Origin: Nitrospira sp.
GTDB taxonomy: Bacteria; Nitrospirota; Nitrospiria; Nitrospirales; Nitrospiraceae
DNA length: 34,208 nucleotides
Direction: 5' to 3'
NCBI GenBank assembly: GCA_016873495.1
Contig: VGXC01000031.1
Location: 1-34,208, forward strand
In this document: positions 17,553 through 33,807 of the stretch, one piece after another
Layout: each line of letters begins with the position of its first letter
How positions within the stretch are numbered: the stretch's first letter is position 1
Translations under genes and position numbers: made by a program
The notes under the pieces: generated by a model
What the model saw: the letters and a program-made list of their open reading frames with translations, nothing else
The model's database searches: none
What the model was told of the DNA's origin: nothing

Positions 17553-17600
17553 TTTCGAGACTGTCCGGTCTCACCGGGTCGGCCACTCTGGCGCCTCTCC
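17553..17600 (-). pseudogene. tRNA-Ser 5'-half copy
   Basis: On the minus strand from 17600, GGAGAGGCGCCAGAGTGGCC and then CAGTCTCGAAA copy the acceptor, D arm and anticodon loop of the intact tRNA-Ser, with changes and a few extra bases in the D loop. Beyond the anticodon loop the similarity stops: there is no matching anticodon stem, T arm or 3' acceptor strand. It is best read as a broken tRNA copy upstream of the intact one. Confidence 0.6.
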
Positions 17601-17624
17601 TCCGCCCACATGGCAAGGAGCGGG

Positions 17625-18110
17625 TTATCCAGCTCGTTCGCTCACCCCGTCGCGCAGGCCGCGAAAAAACGCCTGCATCAACTCCTGGCTTTCCCGTTCC
17701 AAGACACCGCCCACGACCTGGACTCGATGGTTCAGACGCCGCTCATCCGGCAAGTTAAAGACAGATCCGCAGGCGCCGGCTTTGGGGTCCTTGGTGCCGA
17801 AAACCAGCCGGGTGATTCGCGACTGGATGATGGCGCCGGCACACATGGAACAGGGCTCGACCGTGACATACATGGTCGTTCCGGTCAGCCGCCAGCTTCC
17901 AAGCTTGGTGGCCGCTTCCCGGATGGCCACCACTTCCGCATGAGCGGTCGGGTCCTGCCAGATCTCCCGAAAATTGTGGACCTGGGCCAGCACCTGCCCG
18001 TCGAGCACCAACACGGCGGCGATCGGCACTTCGCCGAGCGCCGGGGCCCGCCTGGCCTGCTCCAACGCCAGCTGCATATATTCCAGGTCTTTGTCGCCGA
18101 TAAAGCTCAT
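17625..18110 (-). CDS. tadA: tRNA-specific adenosine deaminase TadA
   Basis: A protein of about 161 residues that deaminates adenosine-34 to inosine in the anticodon of tRNA-Arg(ACG), allowing it to read CGU, CGC and CGA. The zinc/proton-relay motif is PTAHAEVVAIREA (His ligand and catalytic Glu), and the second zinc motif is VEPCSMCAGAI. LGEVPIAAVLVLDG and the C-terminal helix LMQAFFRGLR are typical. The start is ATG 18110; a GTG at 18119 would add three residues. It lies next to tRNA-Ser, transcribed in the same direction. All catalytic residues are intact. Confidence 0.95.
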   Translation of the reverse strand: MSFIGDKDLEYMQLALEQARRAPALGEVPIAAVLVLDGQVLAQVHNFREIWQDPTAHAEVVAIREAATKLGSWRLTGTTMYVTVEPCSMCAGAIIQSRITRLVFGTKDPKAGACGSVFNLPDERRLNHRVQVVGGVLERESQELMQAFFRGLRDGVSERAG

Positions 18111-18188
18111 GGGTGTCACACGATCCGATCGTCCTCAGCGGGCGCTATCTTAACACAGCCACCCCGTACGGAGAAGCCCTAGCGGTCC

Positions 18189-19094
18189 TTAACGATGAAA
18201 GAATTCAAATTCGACTCGGAGTTGAATGGCCGTATAGCGCTGCACCAATCCGGATCGGTCGAGCGGCGTATCCTGTTCGTGATAGAGGCTGATTTCCGCA
18301 TCCCTCCAGCGCAAGGCGAGGCCGGTGATCCAATCTAGCTCGGAGGGCCGGAGCGCATGGCCGCTGGTCCGATCCGTGAAGAAATTCGTGTCCACGAACA
18401 GCACGACCAGGTTGCGGTAGAGGTCGATGTCCGTGTGGGCGACGTACCGGTAGAGGGCGCGGCCGGTGTTGTCGGGGCGCGCGAAGTAGCTTTGGTTGGA
18501 GAAGAGCCACCCCGCGCCGATATAGGCGGTGATATTTTGCTTCGGAAAGACTGAGCGCCACCAGGACCACTGGTTTGCGTCGGCCATGCGGTAGGTCAGC
18601 AGCGTATCCCCATAGCTCTGTATGGTTCCGCTCCGGTCCAGCGGCGCGTCCCGCTCGTACTGCACCCGCCAGCCGACATTGTTCCAGGATCCGGTCAGGG
18701 CATAGGTCTGGTCCCATTCCGTCAGGGTGATCCACCCTTTCCTGCGGTCCGAGAAGAAATTCTGGTCCGTGTAGAACTGGAGGTATTCCTTGTAGAGGTC
18801 CGTTTCCACGTGGACCATGTGCCGGAGACCGGCTAAGCCGCTGTTGTCCGGTCTGGCGGCAAAGGTGGGGTTGTCTACAAGGACCGACGACAGGAGATAG
18901 CCACGAACCCAATGGTCTTCCTTCACCTCGGGATGCGCAACCCCTTCTTCCTGGACCTCTCCGATGGCAGGCAGTGGACGGCCGTATTTCTCAAGCGCCT
19001 CGGCAGGGTTGGGACAGGCGAGAAGACAGAGGCAGAGACATCCGCCAAGCCACAGCGGGCCCCGTATCCGTCCTGTTCTTTTGCTTCTCCACAC
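18189..19094 (-). CDS. Exported beta-rich protein with a two-fold internal repeat
   Basis: 301 residues with an N-terminal signal peptide (positive start, then GPLWLGGCLCLCLLACPNPAEA). A Cys in the hydrophobic stretch could make it a lipoprotein, but no clean lipobox is seen. The mature part contains two homologous units: about 75-170 (ARPDNSGLAGLRHMVHVETD, TDQNFFSDRR, DAPLDRSGTIQSY) and about 200-300 (ARPDNTGRALYRYVAHTDID, VDTNFFTDRT, DTPLDRSGLVQRY). Alternating polar/aromatic strands and the C-terminal VEFEFFHR suggest an outer-membrane barrel. The GTG start at 19094 has GAGGG seven bases upstream. No known family is recognised. It lies downstream of the sigma/anti-sigma pair, so it may belong to their output. 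Confidence 0.75.
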   Translation of the reverse strand: MWRSKRTGRIRGPLWLGGCLCLCLLACPNPAEALEKYGRPLPAIGEVQEEGVAHPEVKEDHWVRGYLLSSVLVDNPTFAARPDNSGLAGLRHMVHVETDLYKEYLQFYTDQNFFSDRRKGWITLTEWDQTYALTGSWNNVGWRVQYERDAPLDRSGTIQSYGDTLLTYRMADANQWSWWRSVFPKQNITAYIGAGWLFSNQSYFARPDNTGRALYRYVAHTDIDLYRNLVVLFVDTNFFTDRTSGHALRPSELDWITGLALRWRDAEISLYHEQDTPLDRSGLVQRYTAIQLRVEFEFFHR

Positions 19095-19223
19095 GATACC
19101 CTCGATTGTCCTGCCGCCACCAGACGGTCCGCCTGTCTTGTTGCGCCTTGTTCATGGAAGTCTGGCTCTTGTATCCGTGTCGGATAGAACTGTCAAGGAA
19201 AGAGCGCGATAAGCGGACAGGGG

Positions 19224-20240
19224 TCAGAGCTGTCCCAATAAATAGATTTCACCGGTCGGTTGCGGACGGCCTCCTTCGGGTTCCAGGCTCACGGCAAACT
19301 TCGTGAGCTGGGTTGGAGCGGGCATGCTGCGGACGATGAGGCGGCTCTTGTGGCCTGTATCGGTGGAGAAGATGCCGGCGCTGACCGGTTTATCCACGAT
19401 CGCCCAGAGTTGATAGGTCTTCCCGGCCGGCAGGGCCGGCATATTGAAGGCGTAGAGGAACGCTTTCTTGGTATCCGGATCGTAGAGCAGGAGGGCGCCG
19501 GCGGACTTAGCCATCGCCGATCCGGCTAAGGATACGGCCTTCACGTGTGGTGATCGCAAAAAGGCCAGCATCTCATCCCTCTGCGCCAGCGCTTTGCGCA
19601 AGCCGGCTGTTTCTTGTTCGCGGCTAGCCACCTGTGCCCGCAATTGCGCCACTTCGGCCTCCTGGCGGACCAGAAGGTCCTGTAACTCGCTGAGGTTGCC
19701 TGCCCCGCGATTGACCTCCTCTCGCATGCCTGTCAGTAGCTGTTCCTGTTCCTGGATCTTGCCTTGCAACGTCTGTATCCGTCCGGATTCCATATGCAGG
19801 GCCTCTTCGATCCGTTGACGTTCCTCGACCGCCGTCGAGGCCTGGTACTGAACCGACAAAGCGTAGAAGGCCGTGCCTGCGAGGAGGACGAGAAGAAGGG
19901 CCGCAAAGGCCGGGTGCGTTCGCCAGGTCGGTGGGGGAGGGAGCAGGTGCTTGACCCAGCCGCCCGATTCGAGGGTTGGACTGGCTTGAGGAACGATGGA
20001 GGGTTGAGGGGCGGCGGCCTGGGCCAACGAGCCCATGAGGCTTGTCTTAAGCTGCGGCGGCGCCGATTGCAGAGGCAAGGAGTAGGGGAGCAGCCCCGCT
20101 AACTTGCGCGACTCTTTGAGCGCGGCATGGCAGGCTTGGCAGCCGGTCAGGAGGTGCGCCTCGAGGGCCTGTCGCTCCGGCCGCTCCAAAGCTCCGGTTG
20201 CGTAGGAGGCAATGTGCTCTTCAAAGACTTCGTGAGACAT
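19224..20240 (-). CDS. Zinc-finger anti-sigma factor with RskA-like C-terminal domain
   Basis: 338 residues. The N-terminal 45 residues carry the anti-sigma zinc motif (HIASYATGALERPERQALEA, then HLLTGCQACHAAL) that binds the ECF sigma factor. A single membrane span follows near residues 110-130 (AFAALLLVLLAGTAFYAL), then a long periplasmic coiled coil (about 135-225, Glu/Gln-rich heptads). The C-terminal RskA-like domain contains LLLYDPDTKKAFLYAFNMPA, GKTYQLWAIVDKPVSAGIFS and FAVSLEPEGGRPQPTGEIYL. Inner membrane topology is inferred. It holds the sigma factor inactive until a signal triggers release. It lies 40 bp downstream of the sigma gene, same strand, a classic pair. Confidence 0.92.
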   Translation of the reverse strand: MSHEVFEEHIASYATGALERPERQALEAHLLTGCQACHAALKESRKLAGLLPYSLPLQSAPPQLKTSLMGSLAQAAAPQPSIVPQASPTLESGGWVKHLLPPPPTWRTHPAFAALLLVLLAGTAFYALSVQYQASTAVEERQRIEEALHMESGRIQTLQGKIQEQEQLLTGMREEVNRGAGNLSELQDLLVRQEAEVAQLRAQVASREQETAGLRKALAQRDEMLAFLRSPHVKAVSLAGSAMAKSAGALLLYDPDTKKAFLYAFNMPALPAGKTYQLWAIVDKPVSAGIFSTDTGHKSRLIVRSMPAPTQLTKFAVSLEPEGGRPQPTGEIYLLGQL

Positions 20241-20280
20241 GCTGGCGATTCCTACTCGAGTGCGATGCCGTCGTTACGGC

Positions 20281-20865
20281 TTAGTCGGCCCATGACTGCA
20301 GAGCGATCTTCAGCTTGGTCATGCCGAGCTTGATTCTGGTCTTGATGGTTCCCACCGGCTGGCGCAATCGTTCGGCGATTTCCGTGTGGGAGAGCCCTTC
20401 GAAATAGGCCAGCTCCAGGGCTTGTTGCTGCCCCTCTGGCAACTCCGCTAAGGCTTTTCGGACCGATGCCCGCAGTTCCGTCTGCTGTTGATCTTCCAGA
20501 GGGCTCGGACCTTCGTTCGGCAATTGCGCCGCCAGCCGGTCGTCAATCGGATCGGTCGTTCCATAGCCCTTGCTGGCGCGCGACCGCAGCCGGTCGATCG
20601 CACGGCTGCGGGCCAGGGTCACCAGCCAGGCCATCGGCGAGCCGCGGCCGACGTCGTACCGGGCCACCTTGCGCCAGACCTCTAGATAGATCTCTTGCAA
20701 CAGCTCGGTGGCTTCATCGCGGTCCCCGAGAATTCTGAGGGCGAGCGTGTACAACAGCGCGCTCGACTGGTCGTAGAGTTCTTCGAATGCTTGTTGGCTC
20801 CCCTTGGCCACTTGCGCCAAGAGGTCTGGGGATAGGGCGGACGCTGGTCTGGTCGACGAATCCAT
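20281..20865 (-). CDS. ECF RNA polymerase sigma factor (SigK/RpoE-like)
   Basis: A 194-residue extracytoplasmic-function sigma factor. Region 2 (about 25-95) has AFEELYDQSSALLYTLALRI, the EATELLQEIYLEVWRKV box and SPMAWLVTLARSRAIDRLRS. Region 4 (about 130-185) has LAELPEGQQQALELAYFEGL, SHTEIAERLRQPVGTIKTRI and the final KLKIAL. It recruits RNA polymerase to stress-type promoters. Its regulator, the RskA-type anti-sigma, follows directly. Target genes may include the downstream exported protein. Whether it also controls the lasso cluster is open; the cluster's last gene ends only 137 bp upstream on the same strand. Confidence 0.94.
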   Translation of the reverse strand: MDSSTRPASALSPDLLAQVAKGSQQAFEELYDQSSALLYTLALRILGDRDEATELLQEIYLEVWRKVARYDVGRGSPMAWLVTLARSRAIDRLRSRASKGYGTTDPIDDRLAAQLPNEGPSPLEDQQQTELRASVRKALAELPEGQQQALELAYFEGLSHTEIAERLRQPVGTIKTRIKLGMTKLKIALQSWAD

Positions 20866-20960
20866 GCTCGCTTGCGAGTCGGCTCAGCCCTCAGGACCGT
20901 GATGCGCATCTTAGCATCCTACGGGTAAGGGGCGCAAAAGGATGTACGGGAGTGATGCAA

Positions 20961-20976
20961 GGGTGACGCGTCACCC
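20961..20976. promoter_or_regulatory. Perfect 16-bp palindrome upstream of the sigma gene
   Basis: GGGTGACGCGTCACCC is its own reverse complement. It lies about 95 bp upstream of the ECF sigma start and just past the end of the nucleotidyltransferase gene of the lasso cluster. With no loop it is a poor terminator but a plausible dimer-binding operator. The protein that would bind is unknown. Confidence 0.45.
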
Positions 20977-21002
20977 CGTAATTCATCAAGGCTTGCGCTC
21001 AA

Positions 21003-22292
21003 TCAGGGAGTTGCAGGGCCCTGCGGCTTCGACGCGACCGCTTGTGGCAAGGAACCTCTCCGCCGCGAGGTGATCGAACGCGGCGGCTCAAGCGAAGCTT
21101 GGTATGGCGGGCTCTGGCGCGGCGTCGGTCTGATGGCGACCAACCCCACCAGCCCCTTGCCGCCCTCCCAGAGGAAGTAAAGGAGGCGGGCCATATAACG
21201 GAAGCCCAGCCAGGGGCGACCGGAGAGGCCATAATGGGCCCGCATGAAATCCGAAGAGGGGAAGAGAATCCCGCATGCATAACGCCACTTAGCCTGGAAT
21301 CCCCTCATGGTCAGCAAGTGGGCAAGGCTCTCGCGCCCGTCCACGTCGGAATCGCCCCGCAAGAGTGGGGTCAATCGCCGATACAGGAAGTTCCGGGGCA
21401 CAGGCTCCGAGGGAGCCCTCAACTGAGTGAAGATGGGCGCTGGAATGGGCGAACCGAGGAGGGCACGGACCTCGCCGAGCAGTCCGGCCAGCAATTCATG
21501 CTGCCCCGTCTGCCTGGCCATGTGCAGAACCTGCGTCCAGTCAAGGGTGTCCGGCTCCTGTCGGATGACGAGGTCCAATTCATACCACCAGAGCAGGGGG
21601 GCCTGCGCCCCTTTGTGAATCAGATGAAAACAGAGGTGCAGCAGGAGGTCGGAGCGGCTCAGCAACAAGGTGTCGACGCCGACCACCCTGCCGGGCACCG
21701 CTCGCGCCCAGACCGCGTCCATATCCATGCAATCGGCAAAGGGCGGATAGGCAATCGTCCAGTGGGGCTCCACACAGACCCTCGCCGGGCGCTCTTTGAC
21801 GAATTCCAGGGTGTAGGAATAAGTTTTGGCAAACCCGGGCCTCCGATCAACTTCTCGGTAGTCCAACTCAGCCAAGGCCGTCCCGACCTCGGAAAGCTGG
21901 GTTCGTTGCACCAGAAGATCAAGATCGCCGAAGAAACGGGCGGTCGGGTCGCCATACAATTGCGTAGCCAAAGCAGGTCCGCGGATCGGAATACAAGCGA
22001 TCCCCCTCTGGTCGAGAGATTTTAAAATGAGGGCCAGTTCTTCGGCTAGGAACATGCTGCGCGCTGCGCGCTGCGCCATGCGGGGCCTCAGGCCGGCGGC
22101 CAATCTCCGGAGTACCGGACGATGCTCGCTTCGTTCGACCAGCCATCGAAAGACGATTGGCGAGAGGTCTTGGGCCTCCGCCCCCTCGACGGCTTGGGCC
22201 CATTCGGATTCGCCTTCCTCGGTGACAGGAGGCTCTCCTCCGGACGGGTTAAGCAATGCCATCAAGTACGGGTGGGCAGTATCCCTTGTCAT
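21003..22292 (-). CDS. Nucleotidyltransferase family protein of lasso cluster
   Basis: A 429-residue protein of the NTP_transf_5-like group. The core region has GIACIPIRGPALATQLYGDP, followed by FFGDLDLLVQ, whose GDLD provides the metal-binding acidic pair of the nucleotidyltransferase fold. The N-terminus (SEWAQAVEGAEAQDLSPIVF) and the helical C-terminal half (HLCFHLIHKGAQAPLLWWYE, LVIRQEPDTLDW) also fit this group. Such genes are frequent companions of lasso-peptide clusters with an HPr-kinase-like enzyme, where they are thought to act on the phosphorylated tail. I chose ATG 22292 behind GAGAGG. An in-frame extension to 22613 overlaps the previous gene and is low in features. It is the last gene of the cluster. 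Confidence 0.85.
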   Translation of the reverse strand: MTRDTAHPYLMALLNPSGGEPPVTEEGESEWAQAVEGAEAQDLSPIVFRWLVERSEHRPVLRRLAAGLRPRMAQRAARSMFLAEELALILKSLDQRGIACIPIRGPALATQLYGDPTARFFGDLDLLVQRTQLSEVGTALAELDYREVDRRPGFAKTYSYTLEFVKERPARVCVEPHWTIAYPPFADCMDMDAVWARAVPGRVVGVDTLLLSRSDLLLHLCFHLIHKGAQAPLLWWYELDLVIRQEPDTLDWTQVLHMARQTGQHELLAGLLGEVRALLGSPIPAPIFTQLRAPSEPVPRNFLYRRLTPLLRGDSDVDGRESLAHLLTMRGFQAKWRYACGILFPSSDFMRAHYGLSGRPWLGFRYMARLLYFLWEGGKGLVGLVAIRPTPRQSPPYQASLEPPRSITSRRRGSLPQAVASKPQGPATP

Positions 22293-22459
22293 GGCTGGGC
22301 GACCTCTCGATGTTGCGCTAGGAGGCCAAGGTTCGTGGTCGAATGAAGGACCGGATTTTCGTACAGGCGGTTGACTCGCTTCGGCCCCTTGAGCGGTCAA
22401 GGTCTCCTCCCGCAATTTGTGTGGGCGATCAACCTGGCTGACCTGTGTGGCGTCCTCCG

Positions 22460-24049
22460 TTATCGCCAGAGCTGGCGCGTCCGGGTGAACATTCGGCGAA
22501 CGGCACGCTTCCATACCTTCGGAATCAGAGCCAGCCCTTGGCGCAATTCTCGTATTGCTTCTTTCCGCTGCCCTTGCTTCAAGTACAGACGAGCCAAGCG
22601 ACCGCGGACCCACAGGGTATCATAGTCGCCGGCAATGCCCATGCGGTAGCCGTTGATGGCCTCTTTCATGGCTCCTTGTATCTCATACAGACGGGCAAGT
22701 CTGGCGTGGATCAAACCATGCTCAGGGTCCAGGAAATGTGCTTGCCTTACCAGCGTCGCGATCGGCTCATGCAGAGGTTTCTGCCCTTCGAGCGCCAGCT
22801 TGAGCGACCGTTCGTAGGCTGCAATGGCGTCTTCCACACGTCCTTGCTTCACAAGGACATCCCCTAACGAGCGGTACCCGTCGGTGAAACGGTTGTCCAA
22901 AGCCAGGGCCTTCTTGAGCCATTCCTCTGCTTCATGCCACTGTTTGTGGCGAATGGCTAGGAGTCCAAGGCCGAAATGCGCATACGGATTGAGGGGGTCG
23001 AGCTGGAGCATGCGATGGTGCTCCTGCTTGGCTCTCTCGAATTGTCTGACCGAATGGTACAAGAGCCCGGAGTGACCGTAGGGGGTACGGTAGGTCCGGT
23101 CCAGATCTAAGGCGCGTTGATACTGGACTCTCGCTTCTGCGATCCGACCTTGTTGAAGATGCAAGTGGGCGAGGTGGTAGCATGGGGCGGCGGACCCCGG
23201 CAGGAGTTTGCTGGCTACCTGGTAGCCCTCTTCTGCAATCTGCAACTGGCCGACTTCTGCGGCCTGTGCTCCTTGTCGCATCCGCGCCAAGCCCTGCAGG
23301 GTTAAAGCATCGGCCCTGCCTGTGAGACGGGAGGCGACCTCCATACCCAGGTACTTCCATTTAAGCGGAGTGAAACCTCCTTCGACCGAATAAGCAATGG
23401 TGGCACATCGTGCCTGAATCCCGGCGGCATGCAGCCGCCCGGCCAGATCCTCCGGCCAGCACCAGGGAAGGGAGCTGTGCTGGCCGGCTGTCTCATAGGA
23501 CACATGCGGGATGACAAGAAAATCGATATCAATATCGAGGAGCACCGCTTCTTCGATCGGGAGCAACGCTCTTAGCGGATAGATCGTGAACGGTTTGGCC
23601 AGGACCGTCGTGGAAATCCGATCTCCATCGAGATCGATTGCTTGCCGAGGGCCAGGATACTGCCGGATGAGGTCTTTCAGATGGCGAAGGATGGCACGAC
23701 GACTGCTGGGCTGATCCCACGAGGGGTCGGGCACGACCCAATGGACTTCCCTCACCAGCCCGTCAAGCAGGGCGGGACAAATATAGTTCGCAATGGTGAG
23801 AGACTCAGCGGCGTTCATCCAGTACATGTCATGGTGAGCGTCAATATGGATGAGGAGGTGATCCCGGATGCCCTCTTCGCGCCAGACATGATAGGCCTGG
23901 TCGTGATTCTCCATCAAAACGATCCGGGTAGGGGAGTCCGGATGAGCCCATCCCGATGGTTCAGTGACTGTGAGGCCAGGTTTCGCCATCTTATTTTTGT
24001 CGCGGCTGCCGAGGGTTGCGGCGTGTACTATCGATGGGCGCAGGGGCAT
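22460..24049 (-). CDS. UPF0489 arginase-fold protein fused to TPR repeats; candidate peptide arginase
   Basis: 529 residues. Residues about 35-245 are a UPF0489 domain of the arginase/deacetylase fold: RIVLMENHDQAYHVWREEG, LLIHIDAHHDMYW with the Mn-binding DAHxD, and AVLLDIDIDFLVIPH with the second DxD pair. Residues about 265-515 are six or more TPR units (YHLAHLHLQQGRIAEARVQY, PYAHFGLGLLAIRHKQWHEA). From memory, UPF0489-type enzymes (OspR and relatives) convert Arg to ornithine in ribosomal peptides, releasing urea. The precursor core here has four Arg, so this role is attractive but unproven. The TPRs may hold the peptide or partner enzymes. ATG 24049 lies 5 bp after the kinase stop; ATG 23989 is an alternative. 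Confidence 0.82.
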   Translation of the reverse strand: MPLRPSIVHAATLGSRDKNKMAKPGLTVTEPSGWAHPDSPTRIVLMENHDQAYHVWREEGIRDHLLIHIDAHHDMYWMNAAESLTIANYICPALLDGLVREVHWVVPDPSWDQPSSRRAILRHLKDLIRQYPGPRQAIDLDGDRISTTVLAKPFTIYPLRALLPIEEAVLLDIDIDFLVIPHVSYETAGQHSSLPWCWPEDLAGRLHAAGIQARCATIAYSVEGGFTPLKWKYLGMEVASRLTGRADALTLQGLARMRQGAQAAEVGQLQIAEEGYQVASKLLPGSAAPCYHLAHLHLQQGRIAEARVQYQRALDLDRTYRTPYGHSGLLYHSVRQFERAKQEHHRMLQLDPLNPYAHFGLGLLAIRHKQWHEAEEWLKKALALDNRFTDGYRSLGDVLVKQGRVEDAIAAYERSLKLALEGQKPLHEPIATLVRQAHFLDPEHGLIHARLARLYEIQGAMKEAINGYRMGIAGDYDTLWVRGRLARLYLKQGQRKEAIRELRQGLALIPKVWKRAVRRMFTRTRQLWR

Positions 24050-24054
24050 GACGA

Positions 24055-25056
24055 TCAGACATGACCAAGCTCTGATCCAGCCACATCTAGGAGCACCGTC
24101 TCTCTGACTGAGGATAGAGCGGAGAGGTCATTGGGCAGTTTCAGCAGCCGAACTGGAACCAGGGATACCATCTGCGCCAGAAAGGAAAGCTGTTCTTGCA
24201 GGACCAGGCGATCCGTGATGTCGAGCGTGAATAATCCTTGGAGGAGTTCCATAAAAGCAACCCGGCGACTGAGCGGTTCGATCCGACCACCTCGGTCTGC
24301 CTGTTCATCGTCCCGTCGCAGGCAGAAGATTCTCGCCAGCGGTTCCGGGGCAGTCGGGAAATCCTGGTGGTCGGGCAAGACCAGGCGCTGCTTGCTGGTG
24401 TAGTGCGCGACAGGAAGAGCTGGGTGATGGGATGAGTTGAGGGCCTCGCGCACGTCATCCCAGAGGCGGACCCCCGGAGAGGCTGGAACGGCAAGAATCT
24501 GTCCCTGGCGCTCTTGGACGACTAGGCAATCATCGCTCAGGATCGGGTAGCCGGCCAGAGCGAAGCTGGCTGCCAGGGTAGACTTTCCCGCCCCGCTGGG
24601 ACCGGTAAATGCACAGACGCCGTGGGGAGTAAGCACAGCCGTCGCATGGAGTGCCTGGATGCTTCGCAGACTAAGGACCAACGGGAGGGTCTGGTTCAAA
24701 AGGAGGTGGTGCAGGGTCTCCGGCGGTGTGCCGAGGCAGGGCTGCCCAAGGACATGCTGCCCTTCACGGTCTGTTAAAAAATCCGCCAGCCCGTGGAACC
24801 GGAGCAAGTAGCCGTTTTCCTGCTTGGCGCAGGAGAGCCACGGCTCTCCGTCCGGCAGGCTGGAGGACATGAACCAATCAGAGGCGGGCAAGAGACCATC
24901 GTGGGCATCCGAGAGGCAAACATGGATACCCGCTTCTGTGCCAAGACTTCCGTCGGGGAGCGCGGGCAATTGGGAAAGCGGCATGTTGCAGGTCAGGGTC
25001 AGACCGGAGAACCGATAGGTGAAGGGATGGCCCGGCGATGGAGAATCGATAGTCAT
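24055..25056 (-). CDS. HPr-kinase-like lasso-peptide kinase
   Basis: A protein of about 333 residues. The N-terminal part starts FTYRFSGLTLTCNMPLSQLP, typical of HprK-related enzymes in lasso clusters. The central P-loop is CAFTGPSGAGKSTLAASFA (Walker A), followed by YPILSDDCLVVQE, which corresponds to the Asp-rich metal site of HPr kinase. In the paeninodin pathway such a kinase phosphorylates the C-terminal Ser of the precursor. Here the precursor ends in Arg, so the target may be Ser9 or Ser5 of the core, or another substrate. I chose ATG 25056; ATG 25149 would add 31 basic residues not seen at the start of relatives. It lies just downstream of the precursor gene. Confidence 0.85.
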   Translation of the reverse strand: MTIDSPSPGHPFTYRFSGLTLTCNMPLSQLPALPDGSLGTEAGIHVCLSDAHDGLLPASDWFMSSSLPDGEPWLSCAKQENGYLLRFHGLADFLTDREGQHVLGQPCLGTPPETLHHLLLNQTLPLVLSLRSIQALHATAVLTPHGVCAFTGPSGAGKSTLAASFALAGYPILSDDCLVVQERQGQILAVPASPGVRLWDDVREALNSSHHPALPVAHYTSKQRLVLPDHQDFPTAPEPLARIFCLRRDDEQADRGGRIEPLSRRVAFMELLQGLFTLDITDRLVLQEQLSFLAQMVSLVPVRLLKLPNDLSALSSVRETVLLDVAGSELGHV

Positions 25057-25203
25057 TGGCCGTTGCCTATCATGATGTTTGCTGCCAATGGTGGCAGGTT
25101 TGCGGCGTGACCGAGGAGAGTCGACTGGCAGCGGAAGGCGGCGATGCATGCGGCTTCGCCATTTCGATCAGTCGCTATCAGGCGCCGGCCTGAGTTCAAG
25201 TTG

Positions 25204-25353
25204 TTATCGCTTGCGGCGGTGACTGTCCTTACCGGAGCCAGCCCTCCCCTGCGTCAATTTCGCAATTGGACCGTACTCTGTGAGTTGAGGAGTCTCATAG
25301 GGCTTTTTGCCCACGGAGGGAACTGGTTTTGATCCTTGATTATTCTGCGTCAT
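25204..25353 (-). CDS. Lasso peptide precursor (49 residues)
   Basis: A short gene found by direct translation between the synthetase and kinase genes. It starts ATG 25353 behind AAGGAGG, spaced four bases, the best ribosome-binding site in the cluster, and ends TAA at 25204. The leader contains YETPQLTEYGPIAKLT (residues 19-34), an exact fit to the lasso leader pattern YxxPxLxxxGxxxxxT. Tyr, Pro and Leu are bound by the PqqD-like protein, and the Thr is the penultimate leader residue. The predicted core is GRAGSGKDSHRRKR: Gly1 and Asp8 can form the macrolactam ring, leaving a six-residue tail SHRRKR. Four Arg, two Lys and one His make it strongly cationic. Other cleavage or ring sites are not excluded, but the only carboxylate side chain after the Thr is Asp8. 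Confidence 0.88.
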   Translation of the reverse strand: MTQNNQGSKPVPSVGKKPYETPQLTEYGPIAKLTQGRAGSGKDSHRRKR

Positions 25354-25374
25354 GGAGCCTCCTTACTTATCTTT

Positions 25375-27330
25375 TCAGGCCAAGGTCAGAGACTGATTTT
25401 TACCTGAGGCCGCACGGATATGATCCGGAGCCATTTCTAGGGCTTCGCGGTTCGACTGGGCCTCGGTGAGCCAAAGTTCCATCCCGACGATCATCCAGAG
25501 AGGCGAACAATAAGCCCTGTAAGCCTGATTGTCTTGCCGATAGCGCTGTCTCAGGTCGTGATACATCCGTTGGACTTCTATGGAATCGATCCATCCTAAC
25601 GTGCCGATGGTCGTCGTTTCCAGGAAATTCAGCATCGCCCCAGCCCAGGGAGTCAGTAGTAGCTCGGCATCAGTATGCGAGAAATCGGCTTTGGTCGAAC
25701 GCTGCCGGACCGACTCGGGTAGGCGATCGCCCATGGTCCGGCGAAGTACGAATTTAGTGATGGGCCCGCGCTGGCGCTGGTCTTGGGGGATGGCCAAGGC
25801 GAACTCCACTACACGCCGGTCATTGAACGGATGGCGTGCGTCAAGCCCAAGCCGGCTCGTGGCTCGTTCGGCCATCTCGTAGCAGATGCTCTGCTCGCCG
25901 CTTCTGACAAACTCATATAGGGACCGCTGGGCGTAGCTCTGGAAGCGACTTGGGAGGGGTGCGGACCGCAACCGGTCGGCCAGATAAATGCGCTTGGCGA
26001 ATTCTTTATCAATCCAGGCCGGCACTCCGTCACGCTTGAAGACCCGGCCATAAGCCTGCCGGACACGTGGAAGGAGCAGGCCGAGTGTTTCTTTGAAGTT
26101 CGCGAGGACATGCCTTGCACTTCCTTCACACGTGAGCGAGCGGAGGAATGTGCCAATTTGTCCTGTGCGCAGCAGATCCGCATAGGGGGCGAAACCCTCG
26201 CCAAGCCAGTCGTCTCCCCCCATCCCTGTAAGAACAACCCGTATTCCCTTCTCGCGAACGAGGCGATAGAGGTCCATGGCCATTGTTTCATTCGGATGGT
26301 CAGGGAAATCACGTTGCTGTCGGATTTGGCGGAGGAGATCGTTGGGAGCGGCCCTATACTCGTCTACCAGGTTCGATTTGAGATCCCATAACTGCACGAC
26401 GTCCTGAATATAGGAACGTTCATCGCAGGGCCTGCCCGGGAAGATCAAGGAGAAGGTCTCGAACCCCTGGCCCTGAACAGTACCCTCCCGGTGCAGGCTT
26501 TGGATCAGGCCAACGACAGAAGAGGAATCCAGGCCCCCACTTAACTCGGCTCCAATCGGACCGTTACTGCGCAGGCGAGCTCGGACGGCCTCTCCGAGCA
26601 CTGAACCGAAATGCTCTGCGTAGGCGTCATCGGTAACGTAACGGATTTCGTGCAGAAGATCGATATCCCAGTACCGGAAGGTTTGCAGCCGATTCGGTTG
26701 CACCGACAGCCAATGGGCGGGCGGGAGCCGTACGATCCCTCGGTACAGTGTCTCCTCCTGACTCAGAATGTCGTCCGCCAAGAACTCGCCGATCATCCCC
26801 TCATTAGGCTCACAAGGGACGGCCGGATGGATCAACAGGGGAGCCAATTCGGAAGCGAAGAGGAACCGACGATCGTCGGCATAGTAGTAGAACGGCCGGA
26901 TTCCAATATGGTCGCGGGCGCAAAAGAGGCGGCGCCGGCGCTCGTCCCAAATCGCAAAGGCGAAGTCGCCGACGAGGTGAAGCGGCGCCGTGTCACCCCA
27001 GCACTCGTACGCAGCAAGCACCAGTTCGGCATCGGTGTCGTCGCGCAGAATGTGTCCCTTGGCTTCCAGCTCCCGATGCAATTCCTCGCGGTTATCCACC
27101 CGGCCGTCGAGCGTGAGGGCCAGCCGTCCGGTCCGATCGACCAGCGGCAGTTGTTCGTGGAGCGATTCGGGCGTGGTGCAAAGTCGGGCATGGCCCAACC
27201 CGATCGGCCCGGCGATCCAGAGGCCTTGTCCATCCGGCCCCCGGTGGATCATCTGCGCGAGCATCCGATCGAGCAAGGTCCGCTCGATCGGGCGGCCGTC
27301 ATAATGGAGGATGCCGACAATGCCACTCAT
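25375..27330 (-). CDS. Lasso peptide macrolactam synthetase (asparagine-synthetase-like, C protein)
   Basis: 651 residues of the AsnB family. The N-terminal glutaminase-like domain (1-200) begins MSGIVGILHYDG and has MIHRGPDGQGLW and GDFAFAIWDERRRRLFCARD. Position 2 is Ser, where active glutamine amidotransferases have Cys, so ammonia release from glutamine is not expected. The synthetase domain (about 230-600) has the PPi-loop ELSGGLDSSSVVGL, VVLTGMGGDDWLGEG and the C-terminal HPFNDRRVVEFALAIP. In lasso pathways this enzyme adenylates the Asp/Glu side chain and closes the ring onto the core N-terminus. Start ATG 27330 has AGGAG seven bases upstream. The precursor gene follows 21 bp downstream. 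Confidence 0.9.
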   Translation of the reverse strand: MSGIVGILHYDGRPIERTLLDRMLAQMIHRGPDGQGLWIAGPIGLGHARLCTTPESLHEQLPLVDRTGRLALTLDGRVDNREELHRELEAKGHILRDDTDAELVLAAYECWGDTAPLHLVGDFAFAIWDERRRRLFCARDHIGIRPFYYYADDRRFLFASELAPLLIHPAVPCEPNEGMIGEFLADDILSQEETLYRGIVRLPPAHWLSVQPNRLQTFRYWDIDLLHEIRYVTDDAYAEHFGSVLGEAVRARLRSNGPIGAELSGGLDSSSVVGLIQSLHREGTVQGQGFETFSLIFPGRPCDERSYIQDVVQLWDLKSNLVDEYRAAPNDLLRQIRQQRDFPDHPNETMAMDLYRLVREKGIRVVLTGMGGDDWLGEGFAPYADLLRTGQIGTFLRSLTCEGSARHVLANFKETLGLLLPRVRQAYGRVFKRDGVPAWIDKEFAKRIYLADRLRSAPLPSRFQSYAQRSLYEFVRSGEQSICYEMAERATSRLGLDARHPFNDRRVVEFALAIPQDQRQRGPITKFVLRRTMGDRLPESVRQRSTKADFSHTDAELLLTPWAGAMLNFLETTTIGTLGWIDSIEVQRMYHDLRQRYRQDNQAYRAYCSPLWMIVGMELWLTEAQSNREALEMAPDHIRAASGKNQSLTLA

Positions 27331-27417
27331 GGCTCTCCTACGGTCGGGACAGGGCTCGTGAGCGAGGCGCGTTGATCGGCAGGAGAGCGCCATCCTGCCC
27401 CCGATGTCGCATGTGGT

Positions 27418-27852
27418 TCATTTCTCGCTTGTGGAATAGAGCAGGGTATAGTTCTCGAAGCCCGCTTGCCCGAGTAAGACCCGGCCGTTCTGATCCAACC
27501 AGGCATGGGCCGTGAAAAAACCGTGCTCCCGTGCCACGCCGATCCGCACGTGCCCCTCCTGCCCGCGCCGTCTGAGCATATACAGCAGCACCAGCGTTTG
27601 CCTGAGGCAAGGACCTCTGGCCGGCCCGGCAAGGGCGGCACGCTCGACCAACCAGGCCAGTCGAGGCGCGTCTGCCTCGGCGGACAACGGCCACCGGATC
27701 GCGCTGGATGGAACCCGGCGCAGGAAGTTCAGCACAGACTGGAATGGGATCACGAGGAGAGCGATCTCTAGCGACCACAGCAGCCCCCAGGCTTGCCCTA
27801 GGCAGAGCGCTTCTGCCCACGTGAGCCGACGGAGCTTACGCAGTCGTTCCAT
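27418..27852 (-). CDS. Lasso peptide leader peptidase (B2, transglutaminase-like)
   Basis: 144 residues of the lasso B2 / Transglut_core3 family, a cysteine protease that cuts the leader after the residue following the conserved Thr. The catalytic Cys lies in GPCLRQTLVLLYMLRRRG, the His in FTAHAWLDQNGRVLLG, with the Asp just after it, and the end GFENYTLLYSTSE is typical. The start ATG 27852 (MERLRKLRRLTWAEALCLGQ) lies inside the end of the B1 gene, a 17-base overlap, so translation is probably coupled. A longer frame from 27936 would lie within B1. Works together with the PqqD-like protein, which brings the leader. Confidence 0.9.
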   Translation of the reverse strand: MERLRKLRRLTWAEALCLGQAWGLLWSLEIALLVIPFQSVLNFLRRVPSSAIRWPLSAEADAPRLAWLVERAALAGPARGPCLRQTLVLLYMLRRRGQEGHVRIGVAREHGFFTAHAWLDQNGRVLLGQAGFENYTLLYSTSEK

Positions 27853-28147
27853 CTTGGAGTTCAAATAGCCCCTTCTCCAGCCCAAGGGCAACGAACTTGA
27901 GCAAGTCTTCGCGGCACCGTGCTTCGGCCACCTCATATTCTTGGACCATGCGGTCCAATACCGACTGCAGGTGCCGGTGTTCCTGCAACAAGTGCCAGAT
28001 ACGCGTGCCCACCTGGTCCAGGCCGAAATATACTCCGGTCGTCAGGTTGAGGAGCACCAATTCTCCCTGCAGATCTCGGAACACGACGCCCTCCGCAATG
28101 TTCACGCGGGAGGCAGGTGATAGCTGTGGGTCTGTGACGTTGGACAT
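27836..28147 (-). CDS. PqqD-family leader-binding protein (lasso B1, RRE)
   Basis: 103 residues of the PqqD/RRE fold (three strands and a helical bundle). It contains VNIAEGVVFRDLQGELVLLN, LTTGVYFGLDQVGTRIWHLL and VLDRMVQEYEV, the usual PqqD pattern with the leader groove between strand 3 and helix 3. It binds the lasso leader at the Tyr-Pro-Leu motif and presents it to the B2 protease and the synthetase. Start ATG 28147 is preceded by only weak purines. It overlaps B2 by 17 bases. Split B1 and B2 are usual in clusters from Firmicutes, Actinobacteria and several other phyla. Confidence 0.9.
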   Translation of the reverse strand: MSNVTDPQLSPASRVNIAEGVVFRDLQGELVLLNLTTGVYFGLDQVGTRIWHLLQEHRHLQSVLDRMVQEYEVAEARCREDLLKFVALGLEKGLFELQDGTTA

Positions 28148-28283
28148 TGGGCTGAAAGGAACGGTTGAGTCGTCGTTGGCGTAGGGTATCGTCCAAGCTC
28201 TCGGAAGTCAAGAAAGGCGTGGTTCCCGAAGATAGGGCCTGCGAAAGGTTCGACCTGTCGCCTGTCGAAAGACCTGAGCAAGG

Positions 28284-29369
28284 TTAGCGGAGGTGCGAGG
28301 CCAGGATCTCTGCGGCTTCGGCCGCTCCGGTCGGCGCCGGCGGAGCATAGAGCGGGGCAGGCAAGGCCTGCACCGCCGCAAGCGCCGCTTCCCAACGACC
28401 TGCCTCGAAATCCTGAACGGACAGTTGTAGCGCCCGTCCATATCGGTGAAGAAACTGTACCAGGCATTCTTCTTCCGCGAAATCAGACCGTCTGACATAG
28501 AGGGTGGGCTTCCCCATGGTCACGGCCTCGACGGTCATGTTGTAGCCGGGTTTGGAGACAATCACGTCGACCGAAGCCATGAGGGTGTCGAACGAAAAAG
28601 GCATCGATCTCGATGAGCGCAGGCGAGAACACCCGGATGGCACGGACTCGCTGATGATAAACCGGTAGCCCTGAAGGGCGTCGAGCTGGCTCAGCGGGAG
28701 ACGAGTATGGGCGATCCCCCCGAAGCCCACCAACACCAAACAATCGTCCGGCTGAACTCCCAGCGCGGCGTTGAGCCGAGGGCGCTCAGAAACCAGTGGT
28801 CGTATAATAGGAGCGATGACAGTCTGTTTTGGGAACGCGGAAAAAGACATGCCGGGCCTAACCCGCATCAACAGATCCGCATGGCTGTAGGCATGCCGGA
28901 TCTGTTGGATCACCTTCGCCTGCTGAGTATCACCCGGCGTCATGAGCGGCTCTAGGATCTGGTCCCAGGACAAGCTGGACATCGCAATCGTCGGGAGGCC
29001 AGCCCTGGCTCCGGCTTCGACAGCCAAGTGCGAAATGTTCGACAGGAGCAGGCTTGGCGCTTGGGAGCGGATGGCGCGGGTTTCTTCTTCGACCAGGGCA
29101 TCCCACCGTTCATGAAACCGCTGCGTTTTGGCCCAGGTTGCGGCACGGTCGATGTGAAGCGGGTCGTCCTGCACGCAGCCGATATCCTGTGGCTGGGGAC
29201 TGATCTCCCACTCGATCGTGAGGCGTTCTTCAAAAAACCGCCGGGGCACCGTGGTACGGAGCAGGGTTTTGAGGCCCGGGATGCGGGCTCCGAGTTCGTT
29301 GAGCACCGGGACCGTTTGCGCGGCATGTCCGAACCCATGGCCTGAGATGGAGCACCAGATCAGTGGCAT
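28284..29369 (-). CDS. GT-B glycosyltransferase (MurG/UGT-like) in lasso cluster
   Basis: 361 residues. The N-terminal loop CSISGHGFGHAAQTVPVLNE resembles the glycine-rich acceptor loop of GT-B enzymes (MurG/MGT type). The C-terminal nucleotide-sugar region has VIVSKPGYNMTVEAVTMGKP and LYVRRSDFAEEECLVQ. LLSNISHLAVEAGARAGLPT is the typical mid-domain helix. No membrane segment is seen, so it should act in the cytoplasm. It starts 9 bp after the small TPR gene and lies 136 bp ahead of B1 on the same strand. That suggests a tailoring role, possibly sugar addition to Ser, His or a phosphorylated tail, but the donor and acceptor are unknown. It could also be unrelated to the peptide. Confidence 0.75.
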   Translation of the reverse strand: MPLIWCSISGHGFGHAAQTVPVLNELGARIPGLKTLLRTTVPRRFFEERLTIEWEISPQPQDIGCVQDDPLHIDRAATWAKTQRFHERWDALVEEETRAIRSQAPSLLLSNISHLAVEAGARAGLPTIAMSSLSWDQILEPLMTPGDTQQAKVIQQIRHAYSHADLLMRVRPGMSFSAFPKQTVIAPIIRPLVSERPRLNAALGVQPDDCLVLVGFGGIAHTRLPLSQLDALQGYRFIISESVPSGCSRLRSSRSMPFSFDTLMASVDVIVSKPGYNMTVEAVTMGKPTLYVRRSDFAEEECLVQFLHRYGRALQLSVQDFEAGRWEAALAAVQALPAPLYAPPAPTGAAEAAEILASHLR

Positions 29370-29378
29370 GCGGAGGGA

Positions 29379-29696
29379 CTATCCAAGCTGCTGGAGGAGA
29401 GCCATCAGCTCCGGGACTAGATCGACCCCGCCGGAGGATCGGCCCGACTGGGCTGCGTCGATGCCGGCTTGCAAGATTGGCCTGGCTTCGTCCTTCCGCC
29501 CAAGTTTGACGAGGGCGCGGCCCAGGGCCAGGTGGGAAGCGACATGCGTCGGATCCAATTGAATGGCGATCTGTAGATGCTCGGCTGCTTCTGAGAGGTC
29601 GCCACCTTCTTGCAGCAACTTATTGCCCAACCCATAGCGCCCCAAAAATCCCTTTGGGTTTTTAACCACCATCTGGCGGAATGCGTCAATATCCAT
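29379..29696 (-). CDS. Small TPR protein, first gene of lasso operon
   Basis: A 105-residue soluble protein made of two or three tetratricopeptide units (FLGRYGLGNKLLQEGGDLSE, HVASHLALGRALVKLGRKDE). No signal peptide or catalytic motif. The ATG at 29696 has AGGA eight bases upstream. Its stop is 9 bp from the glycosyltransferase start, so it very likely leads the same transcript as the lasso genes. It may bind partners or the precursor; the UPF0489 protein of the cluster also has TPRs. Specific function unknown. Confidence 0.85.
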   Translation of the reverse strand: MDIDAFRQMVVKNPKGFLGRYGLGNKLLQEGGDLSEAAEHLQIAIQLDPTHVASHLALGRALVKLGRKDEARPILQAGIDAAQSGRSSGGVDLVPELMALLQQLG

Positions 29697-29729
29697 GATC
29701 GTATCCTGGTTTCTCTTTAATCGCGCGGC

Positions 29730-29738
29730 ATCATAGCA
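29730..29738 (-). promoter_or_regulatory. Extended -10 promoter of the lasso operon (candidate)
   Basis: On the minus strand TGCTATGAT (29738-29730) fits an extended -10 element (TGnTATAAT). It lies about 35 bases before the ATG at 29696. A clear -35 box is not visible. It is the most likely start for the transcript running from the small TPR gene through the lasso genes. Confidence 0.4.
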
Positions 29739-29765
29739 TTAAGTCTTGGCGGCCATCCACAGCGA

Positions 29766-30539
29766 TTACCGTTCCAATCGGGCTTGCCGCAGGACTGCCA
29801 AACGAGCTTCATCCTCCGCCGCCTGAGCGAGCCGATATCGGCTGTTCACCACGACCACCCGCGCCAGACATCGAACGGCCGAGAGCCGATCGCCTCGCCG
29901 TTCGTAGAGTGACGCCAGGAGGCGCAGTACCGCAGCTTCGCCCGGCTCATTTCCCAGCTTGATGAAATGCTCCGAGGCGTTATTGAGGCATTTCTCGGCC
30001 TGATCGTCCCGGCCTGCGGCCAGAAAGGTCTTGCCCAGTTGACTGTAGGTCACGGCCAGTCCATCTTCGTCTCCCGCGACGCGGTGGGAATCCAGGGCTT
30101 GTTTGAAGGCGGCGATCGCTTCGTCATAACGATGGCCGGCCGCTTCCTGGAGCCCGAGGTTCGAATAGAGGATGCCGAGCGCCCGATGGTCCTGGAGCGG
30201 CACGAGCATGTCCAAGGCTTCGAGGTAGTAGGGCCGTGCCTGCTCCGGATGGCCTGCCTCGGCCTGGATATTGCCCAGATTCACCAGGGTCTGCCCGACG
30301 GCCCGTTGGTCCGGTTCGGCTCGTTGGATGGCTAGGACTTCCCGGTAATATCGGTCCGCCTCATCGAGCGCTCCCAGCATGGCGCAGACGTTTCCGAGGT
30401 TGCCGAGGGTCTCGGTGAGCGACATTGCGGGGCCGCAGACTCGGTCTTCCGCAAGCGCCAGCTCAAACCAGTACCGAGCTTGCGCGAGATCGCCGCGATG
30501 CAGGAAGATCTTGCCTTTTTCCTTGTGAGCCTCCGACAT
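29766..30539 (-). CDS. TPR repeat protein
   Basis: A 257-residue soluble protein of about six TPR units from residue 5 to 245 (HRGDLAQARYWFELALAEDR, LGNLGNVCAMLGALDEADRY, LVNLGNIQAEAGHPEQARPY, LYSNLGLQEAAGHRYDEAIA). The longer helices recall Rapsyn/LGN-type TPRs. No signal peptide or enzyme domain is seen. ATG at 30539. It lies 69 bp upstream of the small TPR gene on the same strand, so it may be read through into the lasso operon. It is divergent from the adenylate cyclase gene. Function is unknown; protein scaffolding is inferred. Confidence 0.85.
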   Translation of the reverse strand: MSEAHKEKGKIFLHRGDLAQARYWFELALAEDRVCGPAMSLTETLGNLGNVCAMLGALDEADRYYREVLAIQRAEPDQRAVGQTLVNLGNIQAEAGHPEQARPYYLEALDMLVPLQDHRALGILYSNLGLQEAAGHRYDEAIAAFKQALDSHRVAGDEDGLAVTYSQLGKTFLAAGRDDQAEKCLNNASEHFIKLGNEPGEAAVLRLLASLYERRGDRLSAVRCLARVVVVNSRYRLAQAAEDEARLAVLRQARLER

Positions 30540-30669
30540 GATGGCTAGGATAAGATGGAGCGCAAGCGAAATCCAGCGTCATGTTCGACGGTTGACCAGC
30601 CGACAGGCGCGCAGTCCGTAGCGCGATGATCGGTCGCAGTGCGGTCGTGTGTCGGCCCGGGAGTGCATC

Positions 30670-32808: not shown

Positions 32809-32877
32809 TATAGGCATTGTATCCGGATTCATTTATATCCGTGCTCGATCGATCATATTTTTATTGTATGGAGCTAC
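32809..32877 (+). promoter_or_regulatory. AT-rich spacer with RBS upstream of exported TPR gene
   Basis: A 69-base AT-rich gap in an otherwise GC-rich region, with two TATCCG copies (GTATCCGGATTC and TTATATCCGTG) and GGAG five bases before the ATG at 32878. A promoter is likely here, but no box pair is convincing. Confidence 0.3.
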
Positions 32878-33807
32878 ATGATGCCTGTTTCCCGTGCCGC
32901 CGATAGCTGCGCTGGGGTTCTGCCTCTCGGACTATTTCTGCTGGCTCTGTGGTGCCCCGTTGCCGCCAACGCCCAATCCGATAGGGGCAGCGCGCCGACG
33001 ACGGCGGTTCCCTCGGATCCAGACGAGGATGTCGAAACGTATGAGCTCAAATTTTCGAGAGGCCTGGTCGAATTCGGACAAGGACACTACGAGGCGGCTG
33101 AAATTTATTTCGAACTGGCCCTCGACGGCAAACCCGGCGACCCGGAGGCCAGCTACTACTTGGGCCAATCCCTCCTTCGGCAGGGCAAGCTTGATGACGC
33201 GGAAGATGTGTTCTGCGACATGGTGGATGCGGATCCGGAATCGGGCAAGGCCTGGCTCGGCATCGGCATGATCCAATACAGCCGCAAGGAATATCGCGAG
33301 GCCCTGACGAGCCTCGGCGCCGCCGAGAAGATCATGCCCAGCGACGCCTTGGTCTACTACTTCCAGGGCTTGGCGTACCACGAGTTGCAGGAGTTCGATA
33401 GTTCCCCGGGCCGGTTCCTGCGGGCGATGACGCTCAGCCCGGATTTGGCGCCGACGGCCCAGTATTACAGCGGCGTGGCCTATTTCAAACGCGGCGTAAT
33501 GGATGAGGCTAAAACGGCCTTTGAGTCGGCGATTGCGGCGCAAGGGGACTCGGAGCAGATTCGGGTGGCGCGGGAACTGCTGGCCCAAACCGTCACTCGG
33601 CTGCCGGAAGGCCCCAGGAAATGGAGTCTGAGCGCCAACTTTTCCGGCGAGTACGACACCAACGTGGTCGTACTGCCAAGCGGGACACAGCCGCCCGGAG
33701 GCAGCACCGGCATCTACCGCACCCGGCAAATGGAACTTATTCATAGCGATAACTCCGATTGGGTGCTGATGGAAGCGGAGGAGGACTGTGAAGTCCTCAG
33801 TAGTTAA
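32878..33807 (+). CDS. Exported TPR protein, C-terminus replaced after about residue 280
   Basis: 309 residues as read. The signal peptide (LPLGLFLLALWCPVAANAQS) is followed by about six TPR units (residues 55-240; FGQGHYEAAEIYFELALDGK, YYLGQSLLRQGKLDDAEDVF). At about 250 comes WSLSANFSGEYDTNVVVLPS, the usual first strand of a C-terminal outer-membrane barrel or surface-assembly domain. After GGSTGIYR (about 33719) the frame continues with unrelated sequence, MELIHSDNSDWVLMEAEEDC, and stops at 33807. The barrel domain is therefore missing. The stop overlaps the next start (TAATG), so the tail belongs to the phage-like gene set. I read a break at about 33.72 kb from an insertion or assembly join. 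Confidence 0.75.
   Translation: MMPVSRAADSCAGVLPLGLFLLALWCPVAANAQSDRGSAPTTAVPSDPDEDVETYELKFSRGLVEFGQGHYEAAEIYFELALDGKPGDPEASYYLGQSLLRQGKLDDAEDVFCDMVDADPESGKAWLGIGMIQYSRKEYREALTSLGAAEKIMPSDALVYYFQGLAYHELQEFDSSPGRFLRAMTLSPDLAPTAQYYSGVAYFKRGVMDEAKTAFESAIAAQGDSEQIRVARELLAQTVTRLPEGPRKWSLSANFSGEYDTNVVVLPSGTQPPGGSTGIYRTRQMELIHSDNSDWVLMEAEEDCEVLSS

What the first reader, a model, noticed from the sequence alone, without database searches (positions are those of the whole stretch)
22460..25353. Predicted ornithine-containing lasso peptide: Arg-rich core beside a UPF0489 arginase-fold enzyme
The core GRAGSGKDSHRRKR has Arg at positions 2, 11, 12 and 14. Two genes downstream is a UPF0489 protein with intact DAHHD and DIDIDF metal motifs. 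UPF0489-type peptide arginases turn Arg into ornithine in other ribosomal peptides. An arginase acting on a lasso scaffold would be a new tailoring step as far as I know. Each conversion lowers mass by 42.02 Da.
Basis: partly seen in the sequence, partly recalled or inferred. Interest (0 to 1): 0.92.

Follow-up and report, generated by a model that had tools for sequence, protein, structure and literature searches.

The report
Lasso peptide cluster with arginase-like enzyme
A bacterial gene cluster for a knot-shaped (lasso) peptide carries a gene for an enzyme built like those that turn arginine into ornithine, a pairing that recurs in several unrelated bacterial groups and may be a new way of decorating lasso peptides, although the chemistry has not been shown.

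Summary
The window holds a complete lasso-peptide cluster (B1, B2, cyclase, precursor, HprK-type kinase), and a UPF0489+TPR gene two genes downstream of the precursor. The UPF0489 domain is a divergent peptide-arginase-type ureohydrolase. OspR (8BRP) is its only significant PDB sequence relative (profile E=6e-21) and its best structural match (Z 16.1, against 10.5 for the next enzyme). All six Mn ligands are present. One residue thought to help catalysis (OspR Glu11) is Asn48. PbsE, a TPR-containing arginase, is an experimental precedent. New here: UPF0489+TPR genes of this kind occur in seven further lasso clusters (Melainabacteria, Acidobacteriota, Chloroflexota, Pseudomonadota), and the cyclase tree needs about six separate gains. 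I found no paper reporting an arginase in a lasso cluster. The window and a Melainabacteria cluster have the two most Arg-rich cores of 66 (4 of 14 each). But Arg content does not differ overall (P=0.24), many clusters without UPF0489 have 2-5 core Arg, and one UPF0489 cluster has a core without Arg. Arg-to-ornithine conversion on this lasso is the best explanation (about 0.6), unproven. Which Arg are converted, and when, is unknown.

The parts
22460..24049 (-). UPF0489 (arginase-fold) domain, residues ~40-245, fused to TPR repeats, residues ~248-515; likely start 24049 or the in-frame ATG at 23989
   Evidence: Pfam UPF0489 21 bits, NF052474 5.5e-10, OspR profile 6e-21, fold Z 16.1; TPR_2 2e-23
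23933..24049 (-). N-terminal region of the UPF0489 protein (residues 1-39) before the catalytic domain; mostly low-confidence in the model, no signal peptide apparent by eye
   Evidence: pLDDT <50 for residues 1-36
23900..23911 (-). ENHD motif (residues 47-50), metal ligand H49 (OspR H12); N48 stands where OspR has Glu11
23828..23842 (-). DAHHD motif (residues 70-74), metal ligands D70, H72, D74 (OspR D39, H41, D43)
23519..23539 (-). LDIDIDF motif (residues 171-177), metal ligands D174, D176 (OspR D165, D167)
25204..25353 (-). Lasso precursor A (49 aa), leader then core GRAGSGKD-SHRRKR
   Evidence: lasso_leader_L3 28.4 bits (cut-off 19); leader conserved in relatives
25207..25248 (-). Core region (14 codons); predicted Gly1-Asp8 ring, Arg at 2, 11, 12, 14
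   Evidence: the ring prediction is inference from lasso rules
24055..25056 (-). HprK-type lasso peptide kinase (start chosen at the conserved MTIDS; the longest ORF starts at 25149)
   Evidence: (HprK_rel_A 3.6e-8)
25375..27330 (-). Lasso macrolactam cyclase C (asparagine-synthetase-like), start at MSGIVGI
   Evidence: NF033535 524.9 vs cut-off 525 bits
27418..27852 (-). B2 leader peptidase (Transglut_core3; NF033537 above cut-off)
27836..28147 (-). B1 PqqD-like leader-binding protein
21003..22292 (-). NTP_transf_5 nucleotidyltransferase-like protein, conserved at this place in related lasso clusters
28284..29369 (-). Glycosyltransferase-like protein (MJ1255/VC2487 type, weak match) flanking the cluster in relatives; role in the pathway unknown

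Best explanation
This is a lasso peptide cluster that has acquired a tailoring enzyme of the peptide-arginase lineage. Most likely the UPF0489 domain, a Mn-dependent ureohydrolase, hydrolyses one or more arginines of the precursor core to ornithine, releasing urea (-42.02 Da each), before or after leader removal by B1/B2 and ring closure (Gly1-Asp8) by C. The TPR part probably holds the precursor or the B1 protein. The HprK-type kinase would phosphorylate a Ser, probably Ser5 or Ser9, since the core has no C-terminal Ser. Shown here: the lasso gene set, the arginase fold with all six metal ligands, and recurrent pairing with lasso clusters in several phyla. Inferred: activity on arginine, the substrate being this core, the number, position and order of conversions, the role of the TPR part, and the kinase site.
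For: Sequence: NF052474 peptide arginase E=5.5e-10. A profile of the domain finds OspR 8BRP at E=6.1e-21 as the only significant PDB entry. Fold: the isolated domain model (pLDDT 90.7) matches OspR at Z 16.1, 2.8 A over 176 residues; the next entries are guanidinopropionase and agmatinase at about 10.5. Ligands H49, D70, H72, D74, D174, D176 correspond to OspR's six and are invariant in 14 homologues. PbsE, a TPR-containing arginase of pfam12640, was shown to make L-ornithine and to act in vitro with Mn (PMC12257519; pfam assignment from PMC12703449). UPF0489+TPR genes of this kind sit in seven other lasso clusters (L060-L064, L069, L182). UPF-positive cyclases are scattered among UPF-negative ones, about 6 changes on the tree, 5-6 of them forced by supported branches, while active-site residues stay fixed. 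In the window's own family, UPF-negative cores average 0.44 Arg (n=9) against 4 here. The window and the Melainabacteria core GTRSRGKE-TTRRSA are the two most Arg-rich of 66 and share length 14, GK[DE] at 6-8 and RR at 11-12.
Against: L063 has the intact enzyme but no core Arg and no second related precursor in its genome. Across 66 cores Arg fraction does not differ by UPF0489 (P=0.24); acidobacterial UPF-positive cores have just one Arg each against a mean of 1.62 without the gene. OspR Glu11, proposed to hold the guanidine, is Asn48 here and Asn in the six other lasso homologues whose motif could be read. The domain is shorter than OspR (which has an added dimerization region) and scores below Pfam's and NCBIfam's cut-offs. 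Exported UPF0489-TPR homologues in the phylum lie outside peptide clusters, so the architecture alone does not prove the function.
Confidence: 0.6

Rival explanations
1. The UPF0489 protein is an active ureohydrolase-fold enzyme of the lasso pathway, but its target is not core arginine: a leader arginine, another guanidino or amidino group, or a small molecule.
For: L063 has an intact active site and an Arg-free core. Asn replaces OspR Glu11 throughout the lasso-linked group. Arg content shows no overall association.
Against: Five of six UPF-positive cores contain Arg, two of them very richly. The nearest solved relative by far is a peptide arginase rather than agmatinase or arginase. Characterised peptide arginases left leader Arg unmodified (PMC12703449).
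Confidence: 0.22
2. The UPF0489-TPR protein is mainly a scaffold or recognition factor that brings precursor, B1, kinase and cyclase together; any catalysis is vestigial.
For: Large TPR half. Most lasso clusters do without the protein, which fits an accessory role.
Against: Metal ligands and surrounding active-site residues are invariant in lasso clusters of several phyla, which a pure scaffold would not require.
Confidence: 0.08
3. The UPF0489 gene is a chance neighbour in a mobile cassette and has nothing to do with the lasso peptide.
For: Only the window's own cluster has it among the sampled lasso clusters of its family; the region between GT/B1/B2 and the far flank is exchanged relative to a same-genus genome.
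Against: Eight separate lasso clusters contain it, often inside the operon (between B2 and C in L064, between B2 and HprK in L061, 33 bp after the methyltransferase in L063), with a scattered distribution on the cyclase tree.
Confidence: 0.06

Closest known systems
OspR, peptide arginase of landornamide A biosynthesis (PDB 8BRP; PMC10028609)
   Same: Ureohydrolase fold; same six metal ligands; TIANFI and HxDxHxD regions align; sits in a ribosomal peptide cluster
   Different: The window domain is shorter (OspR has an added dimerization region), has Asn48 for Glu11, Glu223 near the Ser264 position, and a TPR half; its substrate would be a lasso precursor, not a proteusin
PbsE / BipC, arginases of biphenomycin-type peptides (PMC12257519, PMC12707348)
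   Same: pfam12640/UPF0489 enzymes in peptide clusters; PbsE is described as TPR-containing like the window protein
FlmR/OhkR peptide arginases (NCBIfam NF052474; PMC12703449)
   Same: Significant profile match (E=5.5e-10) covering the catalytic motifs
   Different: Score 39 against the family cut-off of 350 bits; precursors there are the DD(I/V)LF type
Citrulassin and peptidyl arginine deiminase (review PMC9266682)
   Same: A known enzymatic change of an arginine in a lasso peptide
   Different: Gives citrulline (+0.98 Da), by an unrelated enzyme encoded away from the cluster
Kinase-containing lasso clusters (paeninodin PadeK, BsfK/BsfN; PMC9266682, PMC10368454)
   Same: B1, B2, C and an HprK-like kinase in one cluster, in some with a nucleotidyltransferase-like gene
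   Different: None is reported with a UPF0489 gene; the window core has no C-terminal Ser

Membership tests
Lasso peptide biosynthetic cluster | Precursor with YxxPxLxxYG-type leader and Thr at -2, followed by Gly1 and Asp/Glu at 7-9 | tested here: met
   lasso_leader_L3 above cut-off; T-2, G1, D8
Lasso peptide biosynthetic cluster | B1 (PqqD-like), B2 (transglutaminase-like) and C (asparagine-synthetase-like) genes | tested here: met
   B2 NF033537 67.8 vs 33 bits; B1 PqqD 58.4 vs 23.4; C 524.9 vs 525 bits, at the cut-off
Lasso peptide biosynthetic cluster | Threaded lariat product | not testable with these tools
   needs isolation and MS/NMR
Peptide arginase (pfam12640/UPF0489) | Six metal ligands in EEH, DxHxD and DIDxD motifs | tested here: met
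   H49, D70, H72, D74, D174, D176
Peptide arginase (pfam12640/UPF0489) | Full EEH(N/H)EAF motif, with the second Glu proposed to stabilise the guanidine | tested here: not met
   window ENHDQAY; Asn48 at the OspR Glu11 position
Peptide arginase (pfam12640/UPF0489) | OspR-like three-layer fold | tested here: met
   Z 16.1, 2.8 A over 176 residues, next 10.5; on a predicted model
Peptide arginase (pfam12640/UPF0489) | Score above Pfam gathering cut-off | tested here: not met
   21 vs 27 bits
Peptide arginase (pfam12640/UPF0489) | Arg to Orn conversion with urea release | not testable with these tools
   needs enzyme assay
FlmR/OhkR peptide arginase family NF052474 | Score above NCBIfam cut-off | tested here: not met
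   39.2 vs 350 bits, so a relative but not a member
HprK-type lasso kinase | H...G..GKS...DD motif | tested here: met
   LHATAVLTPHGVCAFTGPSGAGKST...SDD, compared by eye with the motif in PMC10368454
HprK-type lasso kinase | C-terminal Ser in the precursor (paeninodin type) | tested here: not met
   core ends in Arg; BsfK-type kinases use Ser3 instead

The most novel reading that the evidence does not exclude
A widespread but unreported group of lasso peptides in which a TPR-linked peptide arginase, gained several times independently, converts core arginines (here up to four of fourteen residues) to ornithine, possibly with a rearranged guanidine-binding site (Asn48/Glu223 in place of OspR Glu11/Ser264).
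Probability: 0.5. Interest if true: 0.75.

Novelty: new variant of a known kind. Interest (0 to 1): 0.62.

Why it matters
If true, lasso peptides gain an ornithine-forming tailoring step, with an enzyme carried in the cluster. Peptide arginases would be extended to a knotted scaffold, and ornithine gives a primary amine handle on a very stable peptide. The eight clusters listed here, with matched neighbours lacking the gene and one Arg-free exception, make the question directly testable by co-expression and mass spectrometry.

Tried and rejected
(1) Using core Arg content as proof: no overall difference (P=0.24), 5 independent pairs only. (2) Arg presence as specific to UPF0489 clusters: rejected by acidobacterial controls with up to 5 Arg. 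(3) UPF0489 taken from the radical-SAM peptide clusters of the same family (L050, L086, L087): those form their own supported group (100/100 with L066) and carry an insert of about 30 residues, whereas the window protein is nearest to lasso-linked ones from other phyla. The lasso-linked proteins themselves did not form a supported clade. (4) A missed second precursor in L063: none found by motif scan or homology. (5) A precursor for L064: none found; for L182 the contig ends first. (6) More cases on plasmids: no match. (7) The first tree used a mis-framed L182 sequence and was replaced. (8) Full-length fold search is swamped by TPR hits, so the domain was folded alone. (9) The whole genome could not be had as a file.

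Full report
What is there. On the minus strand the window carries, in order, a glycosyltransferase-like gene, B1 (PqqD-like), B2 (transglutaminase-like peptidase), the cyclase C, a 49-aa precursor, an HprK-type kinase, a UPF0489+TPR protein and an NTP_transf_5 protein. The precursor is real: its leader hits the NCBIfam lasso leader model above cut-off, and the same leader occurs between C and the downstream tailoring genes in relatives. The core reads GRAGSGKDSHRRKR. Ring closure Gly1-Asp8 is inferred from lasso rules.

What the enzyme is. Pfam UPF0489 is sub-threshold (21 vs 27 bits) and NF052474 peptide arginase gives E=5.5e-10, far below its family cut-off score. A profile from 14 homologues finds one significant PDB relative, the peptide arginase OspR, at E=6.1e-21. 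The full-length model places the catalytic domain at about 40-245 and TPR repeats after it. Folded alone (pLDDT 90.7), the domain matches OspR with Z 16.1 (2.8 A, 176 residues), ahead of guanidinopropionase, agmatinases and arginases at about 10.5 and below. All six OspR metal ligands (His12, Asp39, His41, Asp43, Asp165, Asp167; PMC10028609) are present: H49, D70, H72, D74, D174, D176. Two second-shell differences matter. OspR Glu11, proposed to stabilise the guanidine, is Asn48 here and Asn in the lasso-linked proteins whose motif was read. A Glu (Asp in L064) at window 223 lies two residues after the position aligned with OspR Ser264, the residue that replaces arginase Glu277. A TPR-containing peptide arginase, PbsE, has been shown to make L-ornithine and to work in vitro with Mn (PMC12257519), so the architecture has an experimental precedent.

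Is the pairing with lasso clusters real? Within the window's family (175 genomes searched) only the window's UPF0489 is in a lasso cluster; three other genomes have related proteins, two of them (L050, L087) in radical-SAM peptide clusters and one (L086) beside radical-SAM genes on a short contig. The family is placed in Nitrospirota because one member (G335) is the record titled Nitrospirae bacterium nzgw276. A scan of the 84,980-genome collection found lasso-linked relatives at 41-52% identity in Melainabacteria (L060), Acidobacteriota (L061, L062, L069), Chloroflexota (L063) and Pseudomonadota (L064), and a class search added L182. In L061-L064 the gene lies inside the operon. The cyclase tree needs about six separate gains. 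So the gene is a recurrent accessory part of lasso clusters, though rare (1 of 200, 1 of 249 and 2 of 265 genomes in three groups).

Does Arg content follow the gene? I assembled 66 precursor cores, 6 with and 60 without the gene. The window and L060 (GTRSRGKE-TTRRSA) have the highest Arg fractions of all (0.29) and resemble each other in length, GK[DE] at 6-8 and RR at 11-12. That likeness was noticed after the fact. L061, L062 and L069 have one Arg each and L063 has none. Without the gene, 9 cores of the window's own family average 0.44 Arg, but 50 acidobacterial cores average 1.62, with up to 5. Overall P=0.24. On the cyclase tree, independent pairs go with the hypothesis 2.5 times and against it 0.2 times out of 5, too few to decide.

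Local history. Against a same-genus genome (L042) the flanks align at 79-87% DNA identity (17553-20944 and 26845-33713). The stretch between them, from inside C through precursor, kinase and UPF0489, aligns only in short diverged pieces (68-74%), including part of the NTP_transf_5 gene. Cyclase identity falls from 72-80% in the first 150 residues to mostly 26-52% after. The relatives carry a PRMT-like methyltransferase between precursor and kinase, for which the window has no match. This looks like a cassette exchange in which the methyltransferase was lost and UPF0489 gained; the direction is inferred.

Mechanism. Most likely the Mn enzyme hydrolyses core Arg to Orn and urea, perhaps with the precursor held by the TPR part; the kinase phosphorylates a core Ser; B1/B2 remove the leader and C closes the ring. 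Fold, ligands and gene association are shown. Chemistry, target residues and order are inferred. Confidence that it is an ornithine-forming enzyme acting on this precursor: about 0.6.

Novelty. A 2022 review of lasso modifications (PMC9266682) covers citrullination but does not mention ornithine or arginase, and searches for lasso with arginase or ornithine found no report. The library covers open-licence papers only, so an unseen report is possible. I rate it a new variant of a known kind.

Noticed in passing
L037-L044, L047, L061, L063, L123-L132 (e.g. L044:10749-11894): A PRMT-like methyltransferase (PRMT_C above Pfam cut-off in L044 and L061) is a frequent gene of lasso clusters in this family and in Acidobacteriota, often with cores lacking Arg, so its target is unclear; its C-terminal part looks PqqD-like by eye.
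   Followed up: partly
window 17553-33713 vs L042: Sharp drop in identity inside the cyclase gene between same-genus genomes, consistent with exchange of the cyclase C-terminal part, precursor and tailoring genes as a cassette while GT, B1 and B2 stay 75-93% identical in protein.
   Followed up: partly
L060:11488-16327: Five tandem similar genes in the Melainabacteria lasso cluster; the two tested are 2OG-Fe(II) oxygenases fused to PqqD-like domains, suggesting repeated hydroxylation of a lasso precursor.
   Followed up: no
L050:5981-11519, L087:4663-9568: Radical-SAM peptide clusters in the window's family with UPF0489-TPR proteins (in L050 apparently also fused to a PqqD-like domain) and Arg-containing candidate precursors; in L087 the cluster sits beside the same glycosyltransferase-like gene as the lasso clusters.
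   Followed up: partly
L051-L059: A separate group of UPF0489-TPR proteins with apparent signal or lipoprotein N-termini, several beside multihaem-cytochrome-like or ABC-transporter-like genes in Nitrospirota, with no sign of a peptide cluster; function unknown.
   Followed up: no
L123-L178: 54 of 95 genomes in one acidobacterial order carry a lasso cyclase homologue, many of the precursors with a conserved [RK]T near the core C-terminus and a kinase gene next door, hinting at Thr phosphorylation.
   Followed up: no
L045, L046: Cyclase plus B1 with no recognisable precursor found nearby and a fatty acid desaturase-like gene directly downstream.
   Followed up: no
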